From Cellulomonas fulva (GTDB taxonomy: Bacteria; Actinomycetota; Actinomycetes; Actinomycetales; Cellulomonadaceae), in assembly GCF_018531375.1 (NCBI RefSeq), contig NZ_JAHBOH010000002.1, positions 310,001-374,000 of the forward strand: 64,000 nucleotides of DNA, in the 5' to 3' direction. A program made the translations under genes and the position numbers. Under the pieces are notes generated by a model. The model was not told the origin of the DNA. It searched no databases and saw nothing but the letters and a program-made list of their open reading frames with translations. Positions 11,636 to 22,074 of the stretch are shown here, one piece after another (the stretch's first letter is position 1; each line of letters opens with the position of its first letter).

Positions 11636-12853
11636 ATGACGACGACCAGGACGACCGTCAGCGGACCGGCTGCGGACGGGCGGTCCCACCCGCGACGCTG
11701 GGCGGCGCTGCTCGCCGGCCTCGCGGTCGCGGCGCTGGCCGCGGTGATGGGGCTCGTCGCGACCTCGCCCGCCGGCGCGGCCGCCTCGCCCGTGCGGATC
11801 ATGGCGCTGGGCGACTCGATCACCGGCTCGCCGGGCTGCTGGCGCGCGCTGCTCTGGCAGCGGCTCCAGACCGCGGGGCTCACCGGCACGGACTTCGTGG
11901 GGACGCTCCCGGGCCAGGGCTGCGGGTTCGCGTACGACGGCGAGAACGAGGGCCACGGCGGCTACCTGGTGACCGACGTCGCGGCGCGGGGCCAGCTCGT
12001 CGGGTGGTTGGGCGCGACCCACCCGGACGTGGTGCTCATGCACTTCGGCACCAACGACGTGTGGTCGAACCGCTCGACGACCGAGATCCTCGCCGCGTAC
12101 ACCACGCTCGTGCAGCAGATGCGCGCCGACAACCCGGACATGGTGGTGCTCGTCGCGCAGATCATCCCGGTCGCGCCCGCGTCGTGCGCCGAGTGCCCGG
12201 CCCGCACGGTCGCGCTCAACCAGGCGATCCCCGCCTGGGCCGCCGGGCTGAGCACCGCGCGGTCGCCGGTCCGGGTGGTGGACCAGTGGACCGGCTGGGT
12301 GCCGGCGACCGACACCGGTGACGGCGTGCACCCGAACGACGCCGGCATCGTGAAGATGGCCGACCGGTGGTACGCGCCGCTCGCCGCGGTCCTCACCGGG
12401 ACGCAGCCGACGACGAGCCCGACGCCGACCCCCACACCCACCTCGACCCCCACGCCCACACCCACGCCGACGCCCACGCCCACGCCCACGCCCACGCCCA
12501 CGGTGACGCCCACGGTGACGCCCTCGCCGACCGCGAGCCCGACGTTCACCATGCCCCCGTACCTCGGCTGCACGGCGCAGTGGGTCGTCGCGAGCCGGTG
12601 GCCCGGTGGCTTCGTGGTCACCGTGCGGGTCACGGCCGGCGCCCGGCCGATCTCGTCGTGGACGGTCACCGCCACCCTGCCCGGCGGTCAGGTCGCGAAC
12701 GCGTGGAGCTCGCAGGTGACCACGGCGGGCGGCACCACGACGTTCACGCCCGCGCCGTGGAACGGCAGCCTCCCGGCCGGTGGGACCACGGAGCTCGGGT
12801 TCCAGGGCACGGGCGACCCGACGGCGACCTCGGTCACCTGCCGCGCAGCCTGA
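11636..12853 (+). CDS. Secreted SGNH/GDSL esterase (CE3-like) with Pro-Thr linker and CBM2-type domain
   Basis: Likely acetyl-xylan or related carbohydrate esterase acting outside the cell on plant polysaccharide. 405 residues. A signal peptide (basic start, hydrophobic 22-42, cleavage near AGAAA) precedes the SGNH domain: Ser in MALGDSITG, the Gly block, Asn in FGTNDVW and His in DGVHPNDAG. The order and spacing resemble CE3 esterases. A linker of about 40 residues of repeated Pro-Thr follows. The C-terminal 100 residues start with a Cys (YLGCTAQW) and end with a Cys (SVTCRAA) and contain W residues spaced as in family 2 cellulose-binding modules. GGGAGG stands upstream of the ATG. Confidence 0.87.
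   Translation: MTTTRTTVSGPAADGRSHPRRWAALLAGLAVAALAAVMGLVATSPAGAAASPVRIMALGDSITGSPGCWRALLWQRLQTAGLTGTDFVGTLPGQGCGFAYDGENEGHGGYLVTDVAARGQLVGWLGATHPDVVLMHFGTNDVWSNRSTTEILAAYTTLVQQMRADNPDMVVLVAQIIPVAPASCAECPARTVALNQAIPAWAAGLSTARSPVRVVDQWTGWVPATDTGDGVHPNDAGIVKMADRWYAPLAAVLTGTQPTTSPTPTPTPTSTPTPTPTPTPTPTPTPTPTVTPTVTPSPTASPTFTMPPYLGCTAQWVVASRWPGGFVVTVRVTAGARPISSWTVTATLPGGQVANAWSSQVTTAGGTTTFTPAPWNGSLPAGGTTELGFQGTGDPTATSVTCRAA
12418..12540 (+). repeat. Low-complexity Pro-Thr coding repeat
   Basis: Repeated 6-nt units of the form cccacg/ccgacc encode the Pro-Thr linker joining esterase and carbohydrate-binding domains. Confidence 0.95.
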
Positions 12854-14901: not shown

Positions 14902-15237
14902 TCAGGCCGCGCGGCGAGTGATCCGCACGGTCCACGCGTCGGGGCCGTCGACCAGGACCTCGGTGTCGATCGGCGCGCGCTCGGCGAGCTGCGCGAGCAG
15001 CGGGCGAGGCAGGTGCGGCGCGACGAGCACCAGGGACTCGCCGGGCGCGATCGCCTCGAACGCGCCGAAGACCGTCGCGTGCCGGATCGCGTGCGGGATC
15101 GTCCGGACGTCGAGGACCGGGTCGCCCTCGTCGTGGCCGCCGCACCCGCAGGTGTGGCCGCCCTCGGGCGCGCTCGCGAGGGGCGCGCTCTCGAGAGGTG
15201 GGCGGGACGTCTGGATGTCGACGTGCTGGCTGGTCAT
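14902..15237 (-). CDS. DUF2249 domain protein with Cys/His motif
   Basis: 111 residues. The C-terminal 75 residues are a DUF2249 (SirA/TusA-like) fold: VLDVRTIPHAIRHATVFGAFEAI and the later ESLVLVAPHLPRPLLAQL. The N-terminal arm carries HTCGCGGH, a potential metal site. DUF2249 proteins recur beside nitrite and NO reductase genes and their regulators; their biochemical role is unsettled. The ATG overlaps the regulator stop by 4 nt (ATGA), so it is co-translated with the regulator. Confidence 0.82.
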   Translation of the reverse strand: MTSQHVDIQTSRPPLESAPLASAPEGGHTCGCGGHDEGDPVLDVRTIPHAIRHATVFGAFEAIAPGESLVLVAPHLPRPLLAQLAERAPIDTEVLVDGPDAWTVRITRRAA

Positions 15238-16142
15238 GATGCCTCCGGTTCCTGGGCGGTGCTCCGCCCGTGGGTCGAGCGTCGGTCCTCGGCCGCGTCC
15301 GGTGCCGCCGGACCGACCGTGGAAAATCCGACCGTGGAAAAATCGAGCGTGGACACGCTGGGCGACGGTCCGGCCGTCGAGGTCCCGCCCGCTGACGACC
15401 CCTCGTCGGACGCGGCCCGGCGCAGCTCGAGCACGCAGTGCGAGCGGCCGACGAACGGCCGCAGCCGGTGCGCGGTGACGGGACCGCCGGCCGTGGCCAG
15501 GACACCGGCGGCGAGCCCCAGGTGCACGCTGCAGACCACCTCGGGACGCTGCCGCGCGAGCTCGACGAAGGGGCAGCGCCACAGGTCCACGCGCAGGCCG
15601 TCGTCGTCCCGCGCCGGGTCGAACCCCAGCCGGTCGAGGTGACCCTCGAGGGCATCGAGCTGACGCGCGGCCGCGCGGTCGGACCTGTCCTCGTCGGACG
15701 CGGCCGGCGAGCGTGACCCCAGCGCGGGCTCGAGGACGCCGCCGGGTGCCGTCAGCGCGCGGCCGGCACTGCGGGCGGCCTCGGCGGTCGGGCCCAGGTC
15801 CCGCCCGTAGCCCTCGAGCAGCACGCGCGTCAGCGCGACCTGAGCGATGGACCGCTCCAGCCGCCGCATCGTCTCCGGGTCCTCGCGCGCGTCGTCGGGG
15901 GACGCGGCGCGGTAGAGGATGCGCGGGCGCCCGCGCACGGTGCGCACCTCCGGCGCGCGCGCGGCGAGACCGTCCTGCACCAGGCGCGCCAGGTGCTCGC
16001 GCGTCGTGTTCTGGTGCAGCCCGGTCGACTGCGCCAGCTCGCTCACGGTGTGCTGGCCGCCGCGCTGCAGGAGGTGCAGCAGCTCGACGCGGCTCGCGGC
16101 CGCGAGCGTGCCCTCGAGGGGCAGGCGGCGGGTGGCGGGCAT
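15234..16142 (-). CDS. HTH regulator with C-terminal cysteine motif (SufR-like; candidate Fe-S/NO sensor)
   Basis: 302 residues. Residues about 15-75 form a winged helix: ELLHLLQRGGQHTVSELAQSTGLHQNTTREHLARLVQDGL, then VRGRPRILYR. The C-terminal half has WRCPFVELARQRPEVVCSVH and a third Cys in GRSHCVLEL, resembling the cysteine region that binds a cluster in SufR-type regulators. The last 60 residues are low complexity with two FSTVG repeats. It is divergent from the NnrS-like and nirK genes and cotranscribed with the DUF2249 gene, so it probably controls nitrite/NO genes. A CAGACT hexamer 6 nt before the ATG suggests a leaderless start. Cluster binding is inference. Confidence 0.75.
   Translation of the reverse strand: MPATRRLPLEGTLAAASRVELLHLLQRGGQHTVSELAQSTGLHQNTTREHLARLVQDGLAARAPEVRTVRGRPRILYRAASPDDAREDPETMRRLERSIAQVALTRVLLEGYGRDLGPTAEAARSAGRALTAPGGVLEPALGSRSPAASDEDRSDRAAARQLDALEGHLDRLGFDPARDDDGLRVDLWRCPFVELARQRPEVVCSVHLGLAAGVLATAGGPVTAHRLRPFVGRSHCVLELRRAASDEGSSAGGTSTAGPSPSVSTLDFSTVGFSTVGPAAPDAAEDRRSTHGRSTAQEPEAS
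15317..15341. repeat. Two CCGTGGAAAA copies inside the regulator gene
   Basis: CCGTGGAAAA occurs at 15317-15326 and 15332-15341, 15 bp apart, in the 3' part of the regulator gene, where they encode the FSTVG pair on the minus strand. The same decamer occurs twice in the regulator's own promoter region. Confidence 0.85.
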
Positions 16143-16177: not shown

Positions 16178-16216
16178 GGGGACGGAGGTCCCGCGCCGAC
16201 CCTGCGCGCGGATACC

Positions 16217-16227: not shown

Positions 16228-16237
16228 CCGTGGAAAA
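16228..16237. promoter_or_regulatory. Candidate operator copy 2 (CCGTGGAAAA)
   Basis: Overlaps the predicted transcription start and the first codons of the NnrS-like gene. Binding here would block initiation. Confidence 0.45.
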
Positions 16238-17435
16238 CCGCCCGCGACGCGCCGTCCCGCCCGGGCGGCTGGCGTTGCTGCTGCCCGCCGGGACCGCTCT
16301 GCTCGCCGGCCTGGACGCCGCGCTGACCCTGCTGGGCCTGCCGGCTCCGGTGCAGCTCGCGCGGCTCCCGGAGGTGCACGGTCCGCTGATGGTGCTCGGC
16401 TTCGTCGGGACGCTCGTCGCGCTCGAGCGGGCGGTGGCGCTCGCACGCGCCCAGGGCGGGACGCAGCCCGAGCGCGCGCGGCCGTGGGCCTGGGCCGCGC
16501 CCGGCCTGCTCGGGCTGGGCGCGCTGCTGCTCGTCTCGCCCGCGCCGGTGCGCGCCGGGCAGGCGTGCCAGGTCGTCGGCTCCGGCGTGCTCGTCGCGCT
16601 CTACGGCGCCGCGTGGCGACGCCGCCCCGACGCGGCCATCGCGGTGCAGGGCCTGGGCGCGCTCGCGGCGGTCGGTGCGGCCGTGCTGTGGTCGGGCGGG
16701 GTGCCGGTGCCGGACCTCTCGCCGTGGCTCGTCGCGTTCCTGGTGCTGACGGTCGTGGGCGAGCGGCTCGAGCTGATGCGGATCGTGCCGGTGCCCGCGA
16801 CGGCGGAGCACGGTCTGGTCGCCGGGGCGCTCGCGCTCGTCGCCGGGGCCGCGCTCGCGCTGCTGTGGCCGGGGCCCGGCACCGCGGTAGTGGGCGCGGC
16901 CCTCGTCGGGCTCGTCGTGGTCCTGCTGCGGTACGACGTCGCGCGGCGGACCGTGCGGGGCACGGGCCTGCCCCGGTTCATGGCGGTCGCGATGCTCGCG
17001 GCGTTCGCCTGGCTCGCGGTCGCCGGAGCCACCTGGCTCGTCGGCGGCCCCACGACCGGCGGCGTGCGGTACGACGCGGTGCTGCACGCCGTCTTCCTCG
17101 GCTTCGTCATGTCCATGGTCATGGCGCACGCGCCGGTGATCCTGCCGGCGGTGCTGCCTCGGCCGCTGCCGTACCGGGCGGCCATGTACGTCCCGCTGGC
17201 GCTGCTGCACGCGACGCTCGTGCTGCGCGTGCTCGTCGGGGACGCGCGCGGCGTCGGGTGGGCCGTCCAGGTGGGCGGGGTCGGCAACATCGTGGCCGTG
17301 CTGGCGTTCGTCGGCGTGGCGGTGACGAGCGTGCTGCGCGGCGCACCGCGACGGACGGGCCGCACCACGAGGCAAGGGCGCGTCCCGGAGGCCGCGTCGC
17401 CCGCCGGCGCCGAGCCGGTCGAGGTGACCGCGTGA
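16230..17435 (+). CDS. Polytopic membrane protein, NnrS-like
   Basis: 401 residues with about twelve hydrophobic segments and little else. Conserved-looking histidines sit inside membrane segments: EVHGPLMVLGFVGT near residue 50 and AVLHAVFLGFVMSMVMAHAPVILP near 290. These resemble the haem/copper-binding histidines of NnrS, a membrane protein that protects against NO stress. Start GTG fixed by TACGGT 7 nt upstream. The stop overlaps the next GTG by 4 nt (GTGA), coupling it to the nitrite reductase gene. The NnrS assignment is by motif and context, not by a search. Confidence 0.65.
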   Translation: MENRPRRAVPPGRLALLLPAGTALLAGLDAALTLLGLPAPVQLARLPEVHGPLMVLGFVGTLVALERAVALARAQGGTQPERARPWAWAAPGLLGLGALLLVSPAPVRAGQACQVVGSGVLVALYGAAWRRRPDAAIAVQGLGALAAVGAAVLWSGGVPVPDLSPWLVAFLVLTVVGERLELMRIVPVPATAEHGLVAGALALVAGAALALLWPGPGTAVVGAALVGLVVVLLRYDVARRTVRGTGLPRFMAVAMLAAFAWLAVAGATWLVGGPTTGGVRYDAVLHAVFLGFVMSMVMAHAPVILPAVLPRPLPYRAAMYVPLALLHATLVLRVLVGDARGVGWAVQVGGVGNIVAVLAFVGVAVTSVLRGAPRRTGRTTRQGRVPEAASPAGAEPVEVTA

Positions 17436-20221
17436 GCCGCGCGTCGTGGCACCTGCGTGCCAACGGGCTGGTGCTGGCGTGGCTCGTCGCGGCGGCGGTG
17501 CTGACCGTCGCGCACCGGTGGGTCGCGGCGGCCCAGTGGCTCATGGTGCACCTGCTCCTGCTCGGCGCGGTCAGCACCGCGATCCTGCTGTGGAGCCAGC
17601 ACTTCGCGGACACGCTGCTGCGGCAGCCGGCGCCCGGCGGGCGGCGCGGGCTCGTCGTGCGGCTCGCGGCGCACACGCTGGGCGCGGTGCTCGTGGTCGC
17701 CGGCCTCGTCGTGCCCGCCTTCGCGCTGGTGCTCGCGGGTTCGGTGCTCGTCGGTGGTGCGGGCGTCGGCCAGGCGGTCGTGGTGGGCCGGCAGATGCGC
17801 TCCGCGCTGCCGTCGCGGTTCCGGCCGCTCGCGCGCTGGTACGTCGGCGCGGGCGCGGTGCTGCCGCTCGGCGTCGCGTGCGGCGTCGTGCTCGCGCGGG
17901 GGACCGTGTCCGACGACGTGCACGGGCGGCTCTACGTCGCGCACGTCGTCCTCACGCTCGTCGGCTGGGTCGCCACCACCGTCCTGGGCACGCTCGTGGT
18001 CCTGTGGCCCACCGTCCGGCACGCTCGCATCGAGCCGTCCGACGAGGCCGCGGGGCGCCGTGCGCTGCCTGTGGTCCTGGCCGGCCTCGGCGTCGTGGTG
18101 CTCGCCGCCGCGACCGGCTGGCGCTGGCTCGTCCTGGCGGGGTGCGTCGTCGTGGCCGTCGGCGCCGGGCTGGTCGGCGCCATGATGTGGCGCCAGCACC
18201 GGGCAGCCGCTCCCGTGGTCGCCGCGAACGCCGCACGGGTGGTGCCCGCGCGGACCGCGCCGGTGCACGTGCCGCCCGTCTTCGCGCCGGGCTCGCTCGC
18301 GGCGTCCGTGGCCTGGCTGGTCGGCTCGCTCGTGGCGTTCGGCGTGGTCGTCGTCGCCGCGCCCGGCTGGGACGTCGCGGCGCTGCGGGTGCGCGGCCTG
18401 GTCGCGCCGTTCGCGGTCGGCTTCGCCGCGCAGGTGCTGCTCGGTGCGCTGTCCCACCTGCTGCCCGTGGTGCTCGGGGGCGGCCCGGCCGTCGCGCGTC
18501 GGACGGCGGCCGAGCTCGACCGCGGCGCCGTCGTGCGGCTCGTGCTGGTCAACGGCGGGCTGCTGCTGTTCTGCGCGCCGGTGCCGAGCACCGTGCGCGT
18601 GCTCGTGTCCTTCGTCGTGCTGGGCGCGCTCGTCGCGTTCCTGGTGCTCGCGGCGCGTGCGGTCCGGGTCGCTCGGCGGCCCGCGGCTGCGTCGGCACCC
18701 GCGGCTGCGCCGGCACCCGCGGCTGCGCCGGCACCCGCGCCTGCGTCGTCCGGCGCGGTCTCGTCGGCGGTGCCCGGCCCGCCCCGGCCGCCGCGCTCCG
18801 GGGCGCTCGCGGTCGGCGTGGGCGCCCTGGCGCTCGCGCTCGTCGTCGGGGTCGCGATCGACCCGCCCGCTGCCGGCATCGCGGCCGCGGGTGCCCCGGT
18901 GGACGGGGTCGGCCCGGACGTGGTCGCGACGGGCCGGACCACGACCGTCCAGGTCGAGGCGCGCGAGATGCGCTTCGTGCCCGCGCGCGTCGAGGTGCCC
19001 GCCGGGGACCGGCTGGTGCTCGAGGTGACCAACGCCGACGACGACGTGCACGACCTGGTCCTCGCGGACGGCACCACCTCGGGACGGCTGTCCCCGGGTG
19101 CGGCCGCGACGGTCGACGTCGGCGTCGTCGGTGCGGACCTCGACGGCTGGTGCTCGGTGGCCGGCCACCGGCTCATGGGCATGACGCTGCAGGTCGTCGT
19201 CACGGGTGAGGCGGTGGTAGCGGCGGGTCCGTCCGCGGACCCCGACGAGCCGGCGGAGCACTCCGGGCACGACATGTCGGGGCACGACGTCACCTCGGGC
19301 GCCACCTCGGACGGCAGCACGGACGCGGCGGACCTGCTGGACCTGATGGCGACGCCCGACGACGCGTTCGTCGCGCGCGACGCCGCCCTCAGCCCTCTCG
19401 GGCCCGACCGCGGACCCGTCACCCACCGCGTGCGCCTCGAGGTGCAGGAGGTGGTGCGCGAGGTGGCGCCGGGGGTCACGCAGCGGCTGTGGACGTTCGG
19501 TGGGGAGGCGCCCGGACCCGTGCTGCACGGGCGGGTCGGCGACACGTTCGTCGTGACGCTCGTCAACGACGGCACGATCGGCCACTCGATCGACTTCCAC
19601 GCGGGCGCGCTCGCGCCCGACGACGTGATGCGGACCATCGCGCCGGGCGAGGAGCTGACCTACACGTTCACGGCCACCCGGTCCGGCATCTGGATGTACC
19701 ACTGCTCGACCATGCCGATGTCGGTGCACCTCGCGAACGGCATGCTCGGTGCGGTCGTGATCGAGCCCGACGGGCTGCCGGAGGTCGGCCGGCAGTACGT
19801 CGTCGTGCAGTCCGAGCTGTACCTGGGCCCGCAGGGGGGCGAGGCGGACGCCGCCCAGGTCGCCGCCGCGCAGCCCGACCTCGTCGTGTTCAACGGCTAC
19901 GCCAACCAGTACCGGGACCGTCCGCTCACGGCGACCGCGGGGGAGCGGGTCCGGTTCTGGGTGCTCGACGCCGGGCCCAACCGGCCGAGCGCGTTCCACG
20001 TCGTGGGCGGGCAGTTCGACACGGTGTTCCGCGAGGGCGAGTACGCGCTCCGGGACGGCGGCTCGACGGGCAGCGGCGGCTCGCAGGTGCTCGCGCTGCA
20101 GCCCGCGGAGGGTGGCTTCGTCGAGCTGACGTTCCCCGAGGCCGGGACGTACCCGTTCGTGACCCACGCGATGTCCGACGCGGAGTCCGGCGCGCAGGGG
20201 CGCGTCGTCGTGACGCCCTGA
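17432..20221 (+). CDS. nirK: Copper nitrite reductase (NirK) fused to membrane domain and cupredoxin
   Basis: Predicted to reduce nitrite to NO on the outer face of the membrane. 929 residues in four parts. (1) About thirteen membrane segments with intramembrane His (residues 1-480), similar in style to the preceding NnrS-like protein. (2) A plastocyanin-like cupredoxin (about 500-590) with Cu ligands His in VHDLVL and Cys/His/Met in WCSVAGHRLMGM. (3) A His/Met-rich linker HSGHDMSGHD. (4) A two-domain NirK core (about 660-929): DFHAG, the type 1 and type 2 copper motif MYHCSTMPMSVHLANGM, and the second-domain His in FHVVGGQFD. The extra cupredoxin could pass electrons from the membrane part to NirK. 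NirK could instead be a related multicopper oxidase. Confidence 0.82.
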   Translation: MSRASWHLRANGLVLAWLVAAAVLTVAHRWVAAAQWLMVHLLLLGAVSTAILLWSQHFADTLLRQPAPGGRRGLVVRLAAHTLGAVLVVAGLVVPAFALVLAGSVLVGGAGVGQAVVVGRQMRSALPSRFRPLARWYVGAGAVLPLGVACGVVLARGTVSDDVHGRLYVAHVVLTLVGWVATTVLGTLVVLWPTVRHARIEPSDEAAGRRALPVVLAGLGVVVLAAATGWRWLVLAGCVVVAVGAGLVGAMMWRQHRAAAPVVAANAARVVPARTAPVHVPPVFAPGSLAASVAWLVGSLVAFGVVVVAAPGWDVAALRVRGLVAPFAVGFAAQVLLGALSHLLPVVLGGGPAVARRTAAELDRGAVVRLVLVNGGLLLFCAPVPSTVRVLVSFVVLGALVAFLVLAARAVRVARRPAAASAPAAAPAPAAAPAPAPASSGAVSSAVPGPPRPPRSGALAVGVGALALALVVGVAIDPPAAGIAAAGAPVDGVGPDVVATGRTTTVQVEAREMRFVPARVEVPAGDRLVLEVTNADDDVHDLVLADGTTSGRLSPGAAATVDVGVVGADLDGWCSVAGHRLMGMTLQVVVTGEAVVAAGPSADPDEPAEHSGHDMSGHDVTSGATSDGSTDAADLLDLMATPDDAFVARDAALSPLGPDRGPVTHRVRLEVQEVVREVAPGVTQRLWTFGGEAPGPVLHGRVGDTFVVTLVNDGTIGHSIDFHAGALAPDDVMRTIAPGEELTYTFTATRSGIWMYHCSTMPMSVHLANGMLGAVVIEPDGLPEVGRQYVVVQSELYLGPQGGEADAAQVAAAQPDLVVFNGYANQYRDRPLTATAGERVRFWVLDAGPNRPSAFHVVGGQFDTVFREGEYALRDGGSTGSGGSQVLALQPAEGGFVELTFPEAGTYPFVTHAMSDAESGAQGRVVVTP
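18680..18748 (+). repeat. 18-bp tandem repeat encoding an Ala-Pro linker
   Basis: About 3.8 copies of cccgcggctgcgccggca code for the AP-rich spacer between the membrane domain's last helices. Confidence 0.9.
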
Positions 20222-20293: not shown

Positions 20294-21973
20294 TCAGTCG
20301 CGCAGGGAGAGGTACGTCGCGATGAGCGACGCCGTCGACGGGTCCTGCGCCTCGAGCGCCGCGACGTCGCCCTCGACCGCGGGGGCGATCTCGAGCGCGA
20401 GCTTCTTGCCCAGCTCGACACCCCACTGGTCGAACGAGTCGATGCCCCAGACCACGCCCTGGACGAACGTGATGTGCTCGTACAGCGCGATGAGCTGGCC
20501 CAGCACCGCCGGGGTCAGCGACGGCGCGAGGATCGACGTCGTGGGACGGTTCCCCGAGAAGACCCGAGCGGGGACGATCTCCTCGGCCGTGCCCTCGGCG
20601 CGCACCTCGTCGGCCGTCTTGCCGAACGCGAGCGCCTTGGTCTGCGCGAAGAAGTTGGCGAGGAACAGCGCGTGCACGTCCGTGCCGCCGTCGGTCAGCG
20701 GGTGGGCCGGGTTGGCGACCGCGATGAAGTCGGCCGGGATGAGGCGCGTGCCCTGGTGGATCAGCTGGTAGAAGGCGTGCTGCCCGTTGGTCCCGGGCTC
20801 GCCCCAGAACACCTCGCCCGTCGCCGTGGTGACCGGCGTCCCGTCCCAGCGCACGGACTTGCCGTTGGACTCCATGGTGAGCTGCTGCAGGTACGCCGGG
20901 AAGCGGTGCAGGTACTGGGCGTACGGCAGGACGGCGTGCGTGTGGGCGCCCAGGAAGTTGACGTACCAGACGTTGAGCAGGCCCATCAGCACGGGCACGT
21001 TCTGCGCGAACGGCGTGCTCGCGACGTGCTCGTCGACCGCGTGGAAGCCCGCGAGGAAGTCGCGGAAGGCGTCCGGGCCGATCGCGATCGCGAGCGAGGT
21101 CCCGATGACCGAGTCCACCGAGTACCGGCCGCCGACCCAGTCCCAGAACCCGAACGCGTTGGCGGGGTCGATGCCGAACGCGGCGACCTTGTCCAGCGCG
21201 GTGGAGACCGCGACGAAGTGCTGGGCGACGGCGGCCGTGCGGGCGTCGTCGGAGTCCTCGAGGTGGCCCGCGGCCGCCAGTCGCTCCCACAGCCACGTGC
21301 GCGCGAGCCGCGCGTTGGTGAGCGTCTCGAGCGTGCCGAACGTCTTGGAGGCGACGATGAACAGCGTCGTCGTCGGGTCCAGGTCCTTGACGGTCTCGGC
21401 GAGGTCCGTGGGGTCGATGTTGGAGACGAACCGGACCTCGAGGCCCTCCTGCACGTACGGCTTGAGCGCCTCGTACGCCATGACCGGGCCGAGGTCCGAG
21501 CCGCCGATGCCGATGTTCACGACCGTGCGCACGCGCTCGCCCGTGACGCCGGTCCAGGCACCCGAGCGGACGCGCTCGGCGAACGCGAACATCTTCTCGA
21601 GCTCCGCGTGGACGTCGGCGTCCACGTCCTGCCCGTCGACGACGAGCGGCGGCTGCGCACCCGCGGGCCGACGCAGCGCCGTGTGCAGCACGGCGCGATC
21701 CTCGGTGACGTTGATGTGCTCGCCGCGCAGCTGCGCCTGCAGGCGGCCGGCCAGGTCGACCTCGTCGGCCAGGCGCACCAGGAGGGCGAGCGTCTCGTCG
21801 GTCACCAGGTTCTTGGAGAGGTCCACGTGCAGGTCCGCGAGCCGCAGCGAGAGTCGCTGGGCGCGGCCCGGGTCCGCGGCGAACCAGCCGCGCAGGTCGG
21901 GCGTGAGGGTCGACTCGTGCGCGGACAGGTCCTGCCACGCGCTCGTCGTCGTGGCGTCGATGGGGCTGGTCAC
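20294..21973 (-). CDS. pgi: Glucose-6-phosphate isomerase
   Basis: Interconverts glucose-6-P and fructose-6-P; cytoplasmic. 559 residues, normal length. Both PGI signatures are visible: [15 protein letters not shown] near residue 210 (family D-x-T-x-S-K-T block) and [21 protein letters not shown] near 515. The phosphate/substrate segment [11 protein letters not shown] is at about 155 and the catalytic Glu region is in [21 protein letters not shown] is chosen because GGAGG lies 7 nt upstream. NagB encoded nearby feeds fructose-6-P into the same node, but pgi is a separate unit on the opposite strand. Confidence 0.98.
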
Positions 21974-22074
21974 GATGGTTCCTCCGGATGACTGGGACCG
22001 GCTGCTTGAGCGGGGCGCGCGGCGCTCCGGGCGCGGTGCGCTCCGGCTGCGCGCGAACCTTCCCAACCTACTGG

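What the first reader, a model, noticed from the sequence alone, without database searches (positions are those of the whole stretch)
17432..20221. Nitrite reductase fused to a polytopic membrane domain and an extra cupredoxin
One reading frame joins about thirteen membrane helices with intramembrane histidines, a plastocyanin-type cupredoxin (WCSVAGHRLMGM), a His/Met-rich linker and a full NirK core. The order suggests electrons pass from the membrane (quinol or haem) through the cupredoxin to NirK in a single polypeptide, removing the need for a soluble donor. The coupled upstream gene is a similar NnrS-like membrane protein. Known NirK variants have extra cupredoxin or cytochrome domains; whether this exact membrane-cupredoxin-NirK arrangement is described I cannot check.
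Basis: partly seen in the sequence, partly recalled or inferred. Interest (0 to 1): 0.62.

Follow-up and report, generated by a model that had tools for sequence, protein, structure and literature searches.

The report
Membrane-fused copper nitrite reductase
This is a copper enzyme that turns nitrite into nitric oxide, built in one chain with a large membrane part and a small copper electron carrier; the build is already known from related bacteria, but relatives shuffle its parts in ways that suggest the membrane proteins feed it electrons.

Summary
Window 17432-20221 (+) is one 929-codon gene: 12 membrane spans, an anchor helix, a type-1 copper cupredoxin, a flexible linker and a NirK core with every type-1, type-2 and catalytic residue present. 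It is no artefact: the 80 relatives kept of 442 found span the whole fusion, nearly all from actinobacteria. The architecture is in print (PMC4770552: Propionibacterium acnes NirK, with a 400-residue membrane domain "of unknown function" plus a cupredoxin), so this is a new member of a known kind.

I can add to the unknown membrane domain. The coupled upstream protein (16230-17435) has, in its predicted model, the heme-copper-oxidase subunit I fold (Z 27), lacks the catalytic copper ligands and is not Pfam NnrS. The fused domain is its distant, collinear homologue. Other genomes rearrange the parts: in one the upstream protein is fused to cupredoxin-NirK and the membrane domain stands alone; in another all three are separate in one nar cluster. 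This suggests one membrane assembly. Favoured route: menaquinol to heme b to cupredoxin to NirK (inferred, about 0.45). Main rival: an NnrS-like nitric oxide role, since three genomes hold the membrane domain with no NirK match.

The parts
17432..20221 (+). Full fusion gene, 929 aa: membrane domain, anchor, cupredoxin, linker, NirK core
   Evidence: Open frame; the 80 relatives kept of 442 match essentially its whole length
17432..18691 (+). Polytopic membrane domain, residues 1-420, 12 spans, invariant H40 and H171
   Evidence: AlphaFold2 model; 81-row alignment; same domain occurs alone in other genomes
18794..18859 (+). 13th helix (residues 455-476), which by position would carry the chain to the outer face
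   Evidence: Model helix 455-476; a single such helix also precedes the short cupredoxin-NirK of G052
18938..19204 (+). Cupredoxin, residues 503-591, type 1 copper ligands H540 C574 H579 M584
   Evidence: PF13473 E 3e-10; ligands 81 of 81
19205..19366 (+). Flexible linker with His/Met residues, residues 592-645
   Evidence: pLDDT below 50 at 605-627; H610 in 68 of 81
19367..20218 (+). NirK core, residues 646-929
   Evidence: Z 32.6 to Neisseria AniA, 271 residues, rmsd 2.0; ligands and catalytic residues
16230..17435 (+). Coupled upstream 12-helix membrane protein (P0002), heme-copper-oxidase subunit I fold in the model, invariant H50 H286 H300; overlaps NirK start by 4 bases
16179..16192 (+). 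Palindrome GGGAC-N4-GTCCC just upstream of the P0002 start, possible operator (DosR/DevR-like, consensus recalled)
15234..16142 (-). Divergent winged-helix regulator (P0003) with a Cys/Cys/His/Cys pattern like SufR-type iron-sulfur regulators (likeness recalled)
   Evidence: HTH_5 E 1.2e-8; C190 C204 H207 C236 in 24 of 24 rows
14902..15237 (-). DUF2249 protein (111 aa, start chosen by reading), overlaps the regulator's end by 4 bases
   Evidence: PF10006 E 4.9e-23; a DUF2249 or hemerythrin-DUF2249 family gene in 18 of 34 sampled loci

Best explanation
An extracytoplasmic copper nitrite reductase held on the membrane of a high-GC, Cellulomonas-like actinobacterium that also carries nitrate reductase (narG). 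SHOWN BY SEQUENCE: NirK with complete type 1 and type 2 copper sites; an extra type 1 cupredoxin; a 12-span membrane domain with two invariant histidines; an overlapping upstream gene for a second 12-helix protein whose predicted model has the heme-copper-oxidase subunit I fold. INFERRED: the two membrane proteins are homologous heme-b proteins that partner each other and the cupredoxin-NirK part. They oxidise menaquinol and pass one electron at a time through heme b to the cupredoxin, which swings on its flexible linker to the NirK type 1 copper; nitrite is reduced to NO at the type 2 copper. In form it resembles an oxidase subunit I plus a cupredoxin subunit II run in the opposite direction, with NirK as the terminal acceptor. 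Estimates: NirK is an active nitrite reductase, about 0.9; the membrane proteins and NirK work as one assembly, about 0.7; the electron route as described, about 0.45.
For: Ligands complete. P0002 fold: Z 27.0 to cbb3 CcoN, 356 residues, rmsd 4.0, and 25.1 to NorB; all 50 rows shown are oxidase or NO-reductase entries. A P0002 homologue is present in 68 of 80 loci; in 67 it spans at least 300 of 401 residues and directly precedes NirK, overlapping it in 41 of 67 and otherwise at most 146 bases away. The membrane domain is homologous to P0002: profile comparison probability 44-55 over 307-339 columns, against 0.1-0.3 for reversed profiles and at most 2.2 for 20 block-permuted ones. Domain swap: one genome (G070) has P0002-anchor-cupredoxin-NirK in one 899-residue open frame (stop to stop) and the membrane domain alone about 11 kb away on the same contig, with narG and narH genes between; another (G052) has all three separate within about 14 kb, with nar genes among them, all copper ligands and the P0002 signature kept. 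For a Bacillus NirK, cupredoxin donors appeared to be absent, and menaquinol as well as cytochrome c were proposed as donors (PMC3475470 passages).
Against: No heme, quinol or electron transfer was tested. Three genomes (95, 80 and 98% complete) hold the membrane domain with no cupredoxin-NirK match, so it seems to have a role without NirK. P0002 was found nowhere in 6 of the 12 genomes that lack it next door (their completeness was not given), so it is probably not essential to the fusion. Short cupredoxin-NirK forms lack the polytopic part. For Hyphomicrobium NirK, PMC4770552 reports that the N-terminal cupredoxin lies too far from the core for effective transfer and that its copper-site mutant was more active. 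The match of residues 501-929 to that structure has rmsd 12.3-12.6, so the cupredoxin-NirK arrangement is not settled by it. TIGR02376 score is below its curated cut-off. The fused membrane domain's fold was not searched by itself. The Foldseek E-values for P0002 are weak (best 4.8e-3), and direct profile comparison with single oxidase sequences gave nothing.
Confidence: 0.45

Rival explanations
1. The membrane domain and P0002 are NnrS-like nitric-oxide proteins: they bind or channel the NO that NirK makes, protecting the cell, and electrons reach NirK from elsewhere. The fusion puts the NO handler beside the NO source.
For: Proteobacterial P0002 relatives (4 annotated stretches of 8 plasmid records found) lie among DUF2249, metal-sulfur assembly factor, NnrS, Rrf2, hemerythrin/YtfE, NO reductase and Hmp genes. 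The membrane domain stands alone without a NirK match in 3 genomes; in one of them it lies beside a P0003-like regulator and a hemerythrin-DUF2249 gene (L118). The own genome has narG and NirK, but its only PF00115 match is an actinobacterial aa3 oxidase, so no known NO reductase was found.
Against: Neither protein matches the Pfam NnrS model. It does not explain why an extra cupredoxin sits between membrane part and NirK with its ligands invariant in 81 of 81.
Confidence: 0.3
2. The membrane domain is a passive anchor or assembly/copper-loading platform; the donor is the cytochrome bcc-aa3 complex or another membrane cytochrome.
For: Short cupredoxin-NirK forms exist (G052 L130:4048-5541 with a single helix; second copies in the Streptomyces loci L075 and L080, matching from residue 418 or 413 on), so the polytopic part is dispensable for some NirKs.
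Against: H40 and H171 are invariant in 81 of 81 fusions and kept in 6 of 6 stand-alone copies, which a mere anchor would not need.
Confidence: 0.2
3. Artefact: two genes joined by a sequencing error or a chance long frame.
For: High GC makes long spurious frames common in this window.
Against: Same fusion in the 80 relatives kept, at 48-82% identity.
Confidence: 0.01

Closest known systems
Propionibacterium acnes-type actinobacterial NirK (PMC4770552, section 5 part 1 and passages read)
   Same: About 900 aa; N-terminal ~400-residue predicted membrane domain; extra cupredoxin CX4HX4M; NirK core
   Different: Nothing in architecture as the paper words it (the P. acnes sequence itself was not compared here). 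The paper gives the membrane domain no function; the parts I read mention neither a coupled oxidase-fold gene nor swapped forms
Hyphomicrobium denitrificans three-domain NirK (PDB 2dv6, 6tfd, 6tfo)
   Same: N-terminal cupredoxin plus NirK; best solved match that includes the cupredoxin, over residues 501-929
   Different: No polytopic membrane domain; rmsd 12.3-12.6 over both parts, so the relative domain placement differs from the model
Heme-copper oxidase / NO reductase subunit I (CcoN, NorB, CtaD)
   Same: Fold of the P0002 model and, by homology to P0002, probably of the membrane domain; a TM2 and a TM10 histidine in P0002
   Different: No conserved TM6/TM7 copper-site histidines in P0002; the invariant histidines of the membrane domain are in TM2 and TM6 only
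NnrS (PF05940)
   Same: 12-helix membrane protein (recalled) of nitric-oxide gene clusters; near P0002 relatives in Proteobacteria
   Different: No match of P0002 or the membrane domain to the NnrS profile

Membership tests
Copper nitrite reductase (NirK) | Type 1 copper ligands His, Cys, His, Met | tested here: met
   H718 C758 H766 81 of 81; M771 79 of 81
Copper nitrite reductase (NirK) | Type 2 copper ligands, three His | tested here: met
   H723 H757 H912 81 of 81
Copper nitrite reductase (NirK) | Catalytic Asp and His | tested here: met
   D721 H856 81 of 81
Copper nitrite reductase (NirK) | Fold of solved NirK | tested here: met
   Predicted model: Z 32.6 to AniA, 271 residues, rmsd 2.0
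Copper nitrite reductase (NirK) | Score on NCBIfam equivalog TIGR02376 | tested here: inconclusive
   E 5e-47 over 660-925 but 160.8 bits, below the cut-off of 296.3; a model threshold, not a biochemical criterion
Copper nitrite reductase (NirK) | Trimer and nitrite reduction | not testable with these tools
   Needs protein
Actinobacterial membrane-cupredoxin-NirK (P. acnes type) | ~900 aa, ~400-residue membrane domain, extra cupredoxin CX4HX4M, NirK | tested here: met
   929 aa; C574-X4-H579-X4-M584 (description from PMC4770552)
NnrS (PF05940) | Match to the NnrS profile | tested here: not met
   No match for P0001 or its membrane part at E up to 10, nor for P0002 at E up to 10; 1 of 68 P0002-family members at E 0.08; positive control from pSymA E 1.9e-113
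Heme-copper oxidase subunit I (for P0002) | 12-helix subunit I fold | tested here: met
   Predicted model: Z 27.0 CcoN, 25.1 NorB
Heme-copper oxidase subunit I (for P0002) | Active-site copper (or iron) histidines of TM6 and TM7 | tested here: not met
   Only H50, H286, H300 are invariant histidines in 68 rows; none lies in TM6 or TM7, and the one TM7 histidine of P0002 (H194) is not conserved (ligand positions recalled)
Heme-copper oxidase subunit I (for the fused membrane domain) | Same fold | tested here: inconclusive
   Profile homology to P0002; the domain was not searched by itself, the NirK part filled the fold search

The most novel reading that the evidence does not exclude
Three exchangeable parts - membrane protein A (fused here), oxidase-fold membrane protein B (P0002) and anchor-cupredoxin-NirK (C) - form a dedicated menaquinol:nitrite oxidoreductase of actinobacteria. 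It is built from two diverged heme-copper-oxidase-fold heme proteins that lost oxygen/NO chemistry and now export electrons through a cupredoxin to NirK. Nature tests the partnership by permuting the fusion: B | A-C in the window, A | B-C in G070, A | B | C in G052. A and B matched no Pfam or NCBIfam model above its cut-off in the scans made here.
Probability: 0.35. Interest if true: 0.72.

Novelty: new member of a known kind. Interest (0 to 1): 0.47.

Why it matters
How NirK gets its electrons in Gram-positive bacteria is not settled: for Bacillus azotoformans both menaquinol and cytochrome c were proposed, and whether menaquinol acts directly remained unclear (PMC3475470 passages). The published description of the actinobacterial fusion leaves its membrane domain 'of unknown function' (PMC4770552). 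Finding that this domain and its coupled neighbour are homologous, that the neighbour is predicted to have the oxidase subunit I fold, and that they trade places in fusions gives a concrete, testable candidate for a membrane route to NirK, in a widespread group of bacteria.

Tried and rejected
Chance or sequencing artefact: rejected. NnrS membership: rejected for both membrane proteins, and direct profile comparison with single NnrS sequences gave nothing. Direct profile comparison of either membrane protein with single NorB, cbb3 or qNOR sequences also gave nothing, so the oxidase relationship rests on predicted structure, plus weak sub-threshold hits of two stand-alone membrane proteins (COX1 E 0.0029; ccoN E 0.012). 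A first profile comparison of membrane domain and P0002 was not convincing (probability 5.9); it rose only after stand-alone and distant copies were added. The controls were reversed and block-permuted columns of the same family; another real 12-helix family was not used as a control. NosZ, laccase and similar hits are taken as shared cupredoxin folds. No PDB chain matched the P0002 profile by sequence. No membrane-domain match on plasmids. Fold searches of the whole fusion listed only NirK and multicopper-oxidase rows, so they tell nothing about its membrane part. The GGGAC-N4-GTCCC palindrome was not found in the 6.7-kb narG stretch and has a second copy inside the fusion gene at 19081; 7 of 100 shuffles of the window hold at least two. 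Stretches of an Agrobacterium plasmid and of S. meliloti pSymA were fetched as comparators; only the second was used.
Full report
OBSERVATION. Window 17432-20221 (+) is one open frame of 929 codons, with one match in its 3.74-Mb genome. The predicted model (pLDDT 88.2, pTM 0.66) has 12 membrane spans up to residue 415, a further helix 455-476, a cupredoxin 503-591, a linker that is partly disordered and a NirK fold. Its NirK part superimposes on Neisseria AniA (Z 32.6, 271 residues, rmsd 2.0); residues 501-929 match the Hyphomicrobium cupredoxin-NirK over about 365 residues but at rmsd 12.3-12.6, so the placement of the cupredoxin differs. All copper ligands and the catalytic Asp and His are present; in 81 aligned proteins each is invariant except M771 (79 of 81). 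A scan of a collection with one genome per species gave 508 candidate stretches and 442 relatives; the best 80 were kept, and they match essentially the whole length. By their titles they come from actinobacteria, apart from one record labelled 'unverified Bacillus'. The fusion is therefore real.

ALREADY KNOWN. PMC4770552 (passages and section 5 part 1 read; [quoted passage not shown] The window protein fits that description (C574-X4-H579-X4-M584). PMC8756737 (passages) describes other nitrite reductase fusions in Chloroflexi, and the abstract of PMC7775769 (among passages) mentions a four-domain heme-CuNiR in Bradyrhizobium. In the listings of my ten paper searches and the parts of papers I read, I saw no description of the coupled gene or of the swapped forms reported below; most subscription papers are not in that library.

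THE OPERON. The upstream gene P0002 (16230-17435) overlaps the NirK start by four bases. A homologue is found in 68 of the 80 loci; in 67 it spans at least 300 of 401 residues and directly precedes NirK, overlapping it in 41 of 67 (mostly by 4 bases) and otherwise lying at most 146 bases away. Of the 12 genomes without it next door, 6 have it elsewhere (one of these, L007, is a contig edge) and 6 have no match. Divergently transcribed lie a winged-helix regulator (P0003) with C190, C204, H207 and C236 in 24 of 24 rows, a pattern like SufR-type iron-sulfur regulators (recalled; TIGR02702 matches only the DNA-binding part, below its cut-off), and a DUF2249 protein. In 34 sampled loci of 24 groups (of 80 loci; genes called by a simple codon-composition rule), the regulator family occurs in 22, DUF2249 or hemerythrin-DUF2249 genes in 18 and NarG in 8 (one member of each of the last two families checked). 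A palindrome GGGAC-N4-GTCCC stands just before the P0002 start (16179-16192). It is at the same place in 7 of 9 Cellulomonas loci with that stretch (71 loci examined of 80, 17 sites in all); the genome has 19 sites against 3 for the reversed pattern. It resembles the DosR/DevR box (recalled).

WHAT THE MEMBRANE PARTS ARE. P0002 has no Pfam match at E up to 10 and no NCBIfam match above cut-off. Its model (pLDDT 91.9, pTM 0.90) has 12 helices; Foldseek's best hits are cbb3, NO-reductase and aa3 subunits I with weak E-values (best 4.8e-3, TM-scores about 0.5-0.67), and VIA-align gives Z 27.0 to CcoN over 356 residues and fills all 50 rows with this superfamily. Invariant histidines are H50 (TM2), H286 and H300 (TM10) in 68 rows; TM2 and TM10 are where the low-spin heme ligands of oxidases lie (recalled), and no conserved histidine is in TM6 or TM7. 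H50, E66, R67, E178, R179, E181, D236, H286, H300 and R333 are invariant in 21 rows that include four proteobacterial relatives. These four (of 8 plasmid records found) lie in nitric-oxide clusters with DUF2249, metal-sulfur assembly factor and, variously, NnrS, Rrf2, hemerythrin/YtfE, NO reductase and Hmp genes. The fused membrane domain keeps H40 (TM2) and H171 (TM6) in 81 of 81. With distant members added, its profile aligns collinearly with P0002's (probability 44-55, E 1-2e-4, 307-339 columns), while reversed profiles give 0.1-0.3 and 20 block permutations at most 2.2; before that addition the probability was 5.9. I take them as homologous; the fold of the fused domain was not searched separately.

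REARRANGED FORMS. In 98 genomes of the class, 20 match the membrane domain. Besides the own genome, 11 are fused to cupredoxin-NirK, 2 are cut by contig ends or fragmented, and 6 are stand-alone proteins, all 6 keeping H40 and H171. Of these 6 genomes, 3 show no cupredoxin-NirK (G032, G035, G023; 95, 80 and 98% complete), 1 shows only a weak partial match (G046, 28% identity) and 2 have a true one. In G070 that one is an 899-residue frame (stop to stop) in which the P0002 domain is fused to anchor-cupredoxin-NirK, with the membrane domain alone about 11 kb away on the same contig and narG and narH between. In G052 the short cupredoxin-NirK, P0002, regulator, narG and narH, a DUF2249 protein and the membrane protein are separate genes within about 14 kb. 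Both stand-alone membrane genes lie within a few kb of a response regulator with a LuxR-type DNA-binding domain. All copper ligands and the P0002 signature are kept in both genomes. Exchange of fusion partners among three co-located parts is strong, though indirect, evidence that they act together.

MECHANISM. Shown: complete NirK and cupredoxin sites, conserved histidines, gene overlap and swaps. Inferred: heme b in both membrane proteins, menaquinol oxidation, transfer to the cupredoxin and by linker movement to NirK. For: an oxidase subunit I paired with a cupredoxin subunit II is an established electron-transfer geometry (recalled), and menaquinol has been proposed as one donor of a Gram-positive NirK (PMC3475470 passages). 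Against: the membrane domain exists without a NirK match, P0002 can be absent, and in Hyphomicrobium the cupredoxin seemed dispensable (as told in PMC4770552). The NnrS-like NO-handling rival is serious, also because the own genome has narG but its only PF00115 match is an actinobacterial aa3 oxidase; a known NorB and a qNOR do match PF00115, so no known NO reductase was found.

VERDICT. A real, well-conserved gene of an already described kind. The new content is in the surroundings: a partner with a predicted oxidase fold, homology of the two membrane parts, and permuted fusions that make the role of the membrane domain testable.

Noticed in passing
15315-15365: Short direct repeats with GTGGAAAA (15319, 15334) in the 3' end of the regulator gene P0003, whose tail is absent in most of the 24 rows aligned.
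   Followed up: no
11636-12853 (+): By reading of the translation only: a secreted SGNH-type esterase-like protein with a long Thr-Pro linker and a carbohydrate-binding-like tail, as expected of a cellulose degrader.
   Followed up: no
20297-22066 (-): Glucose-6-phosphate isomerase gene directly downstream, convergent with the NirK fusion (NCBIfam E 1e-239).
   Followed up: partly
L075:3508-5001 and L080:3423-4928 (-): Two Streptomyces loci hold a second cupredoxin-NirK frame without the polytopic domain within a few kb of the full fusion.
   Followed up: partly
L123:7704-8933: A divergent stand-alone membrane-domain relative that keeps H40 and H171 but lacks Q334 and N374, in a genome with no clear NirK.
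   Followed up: partly
L086:8235-9590 (-): Sinorhizobium meliloti pSymA frame of 452 aa, hydrophobic, with no Pfam match (best E 2.4), about 2 kb from an NnrS gene; weak profile resemblance to the membrane domain (probability 3.2), possibly another member of the same fold group.
   Followed up: partly
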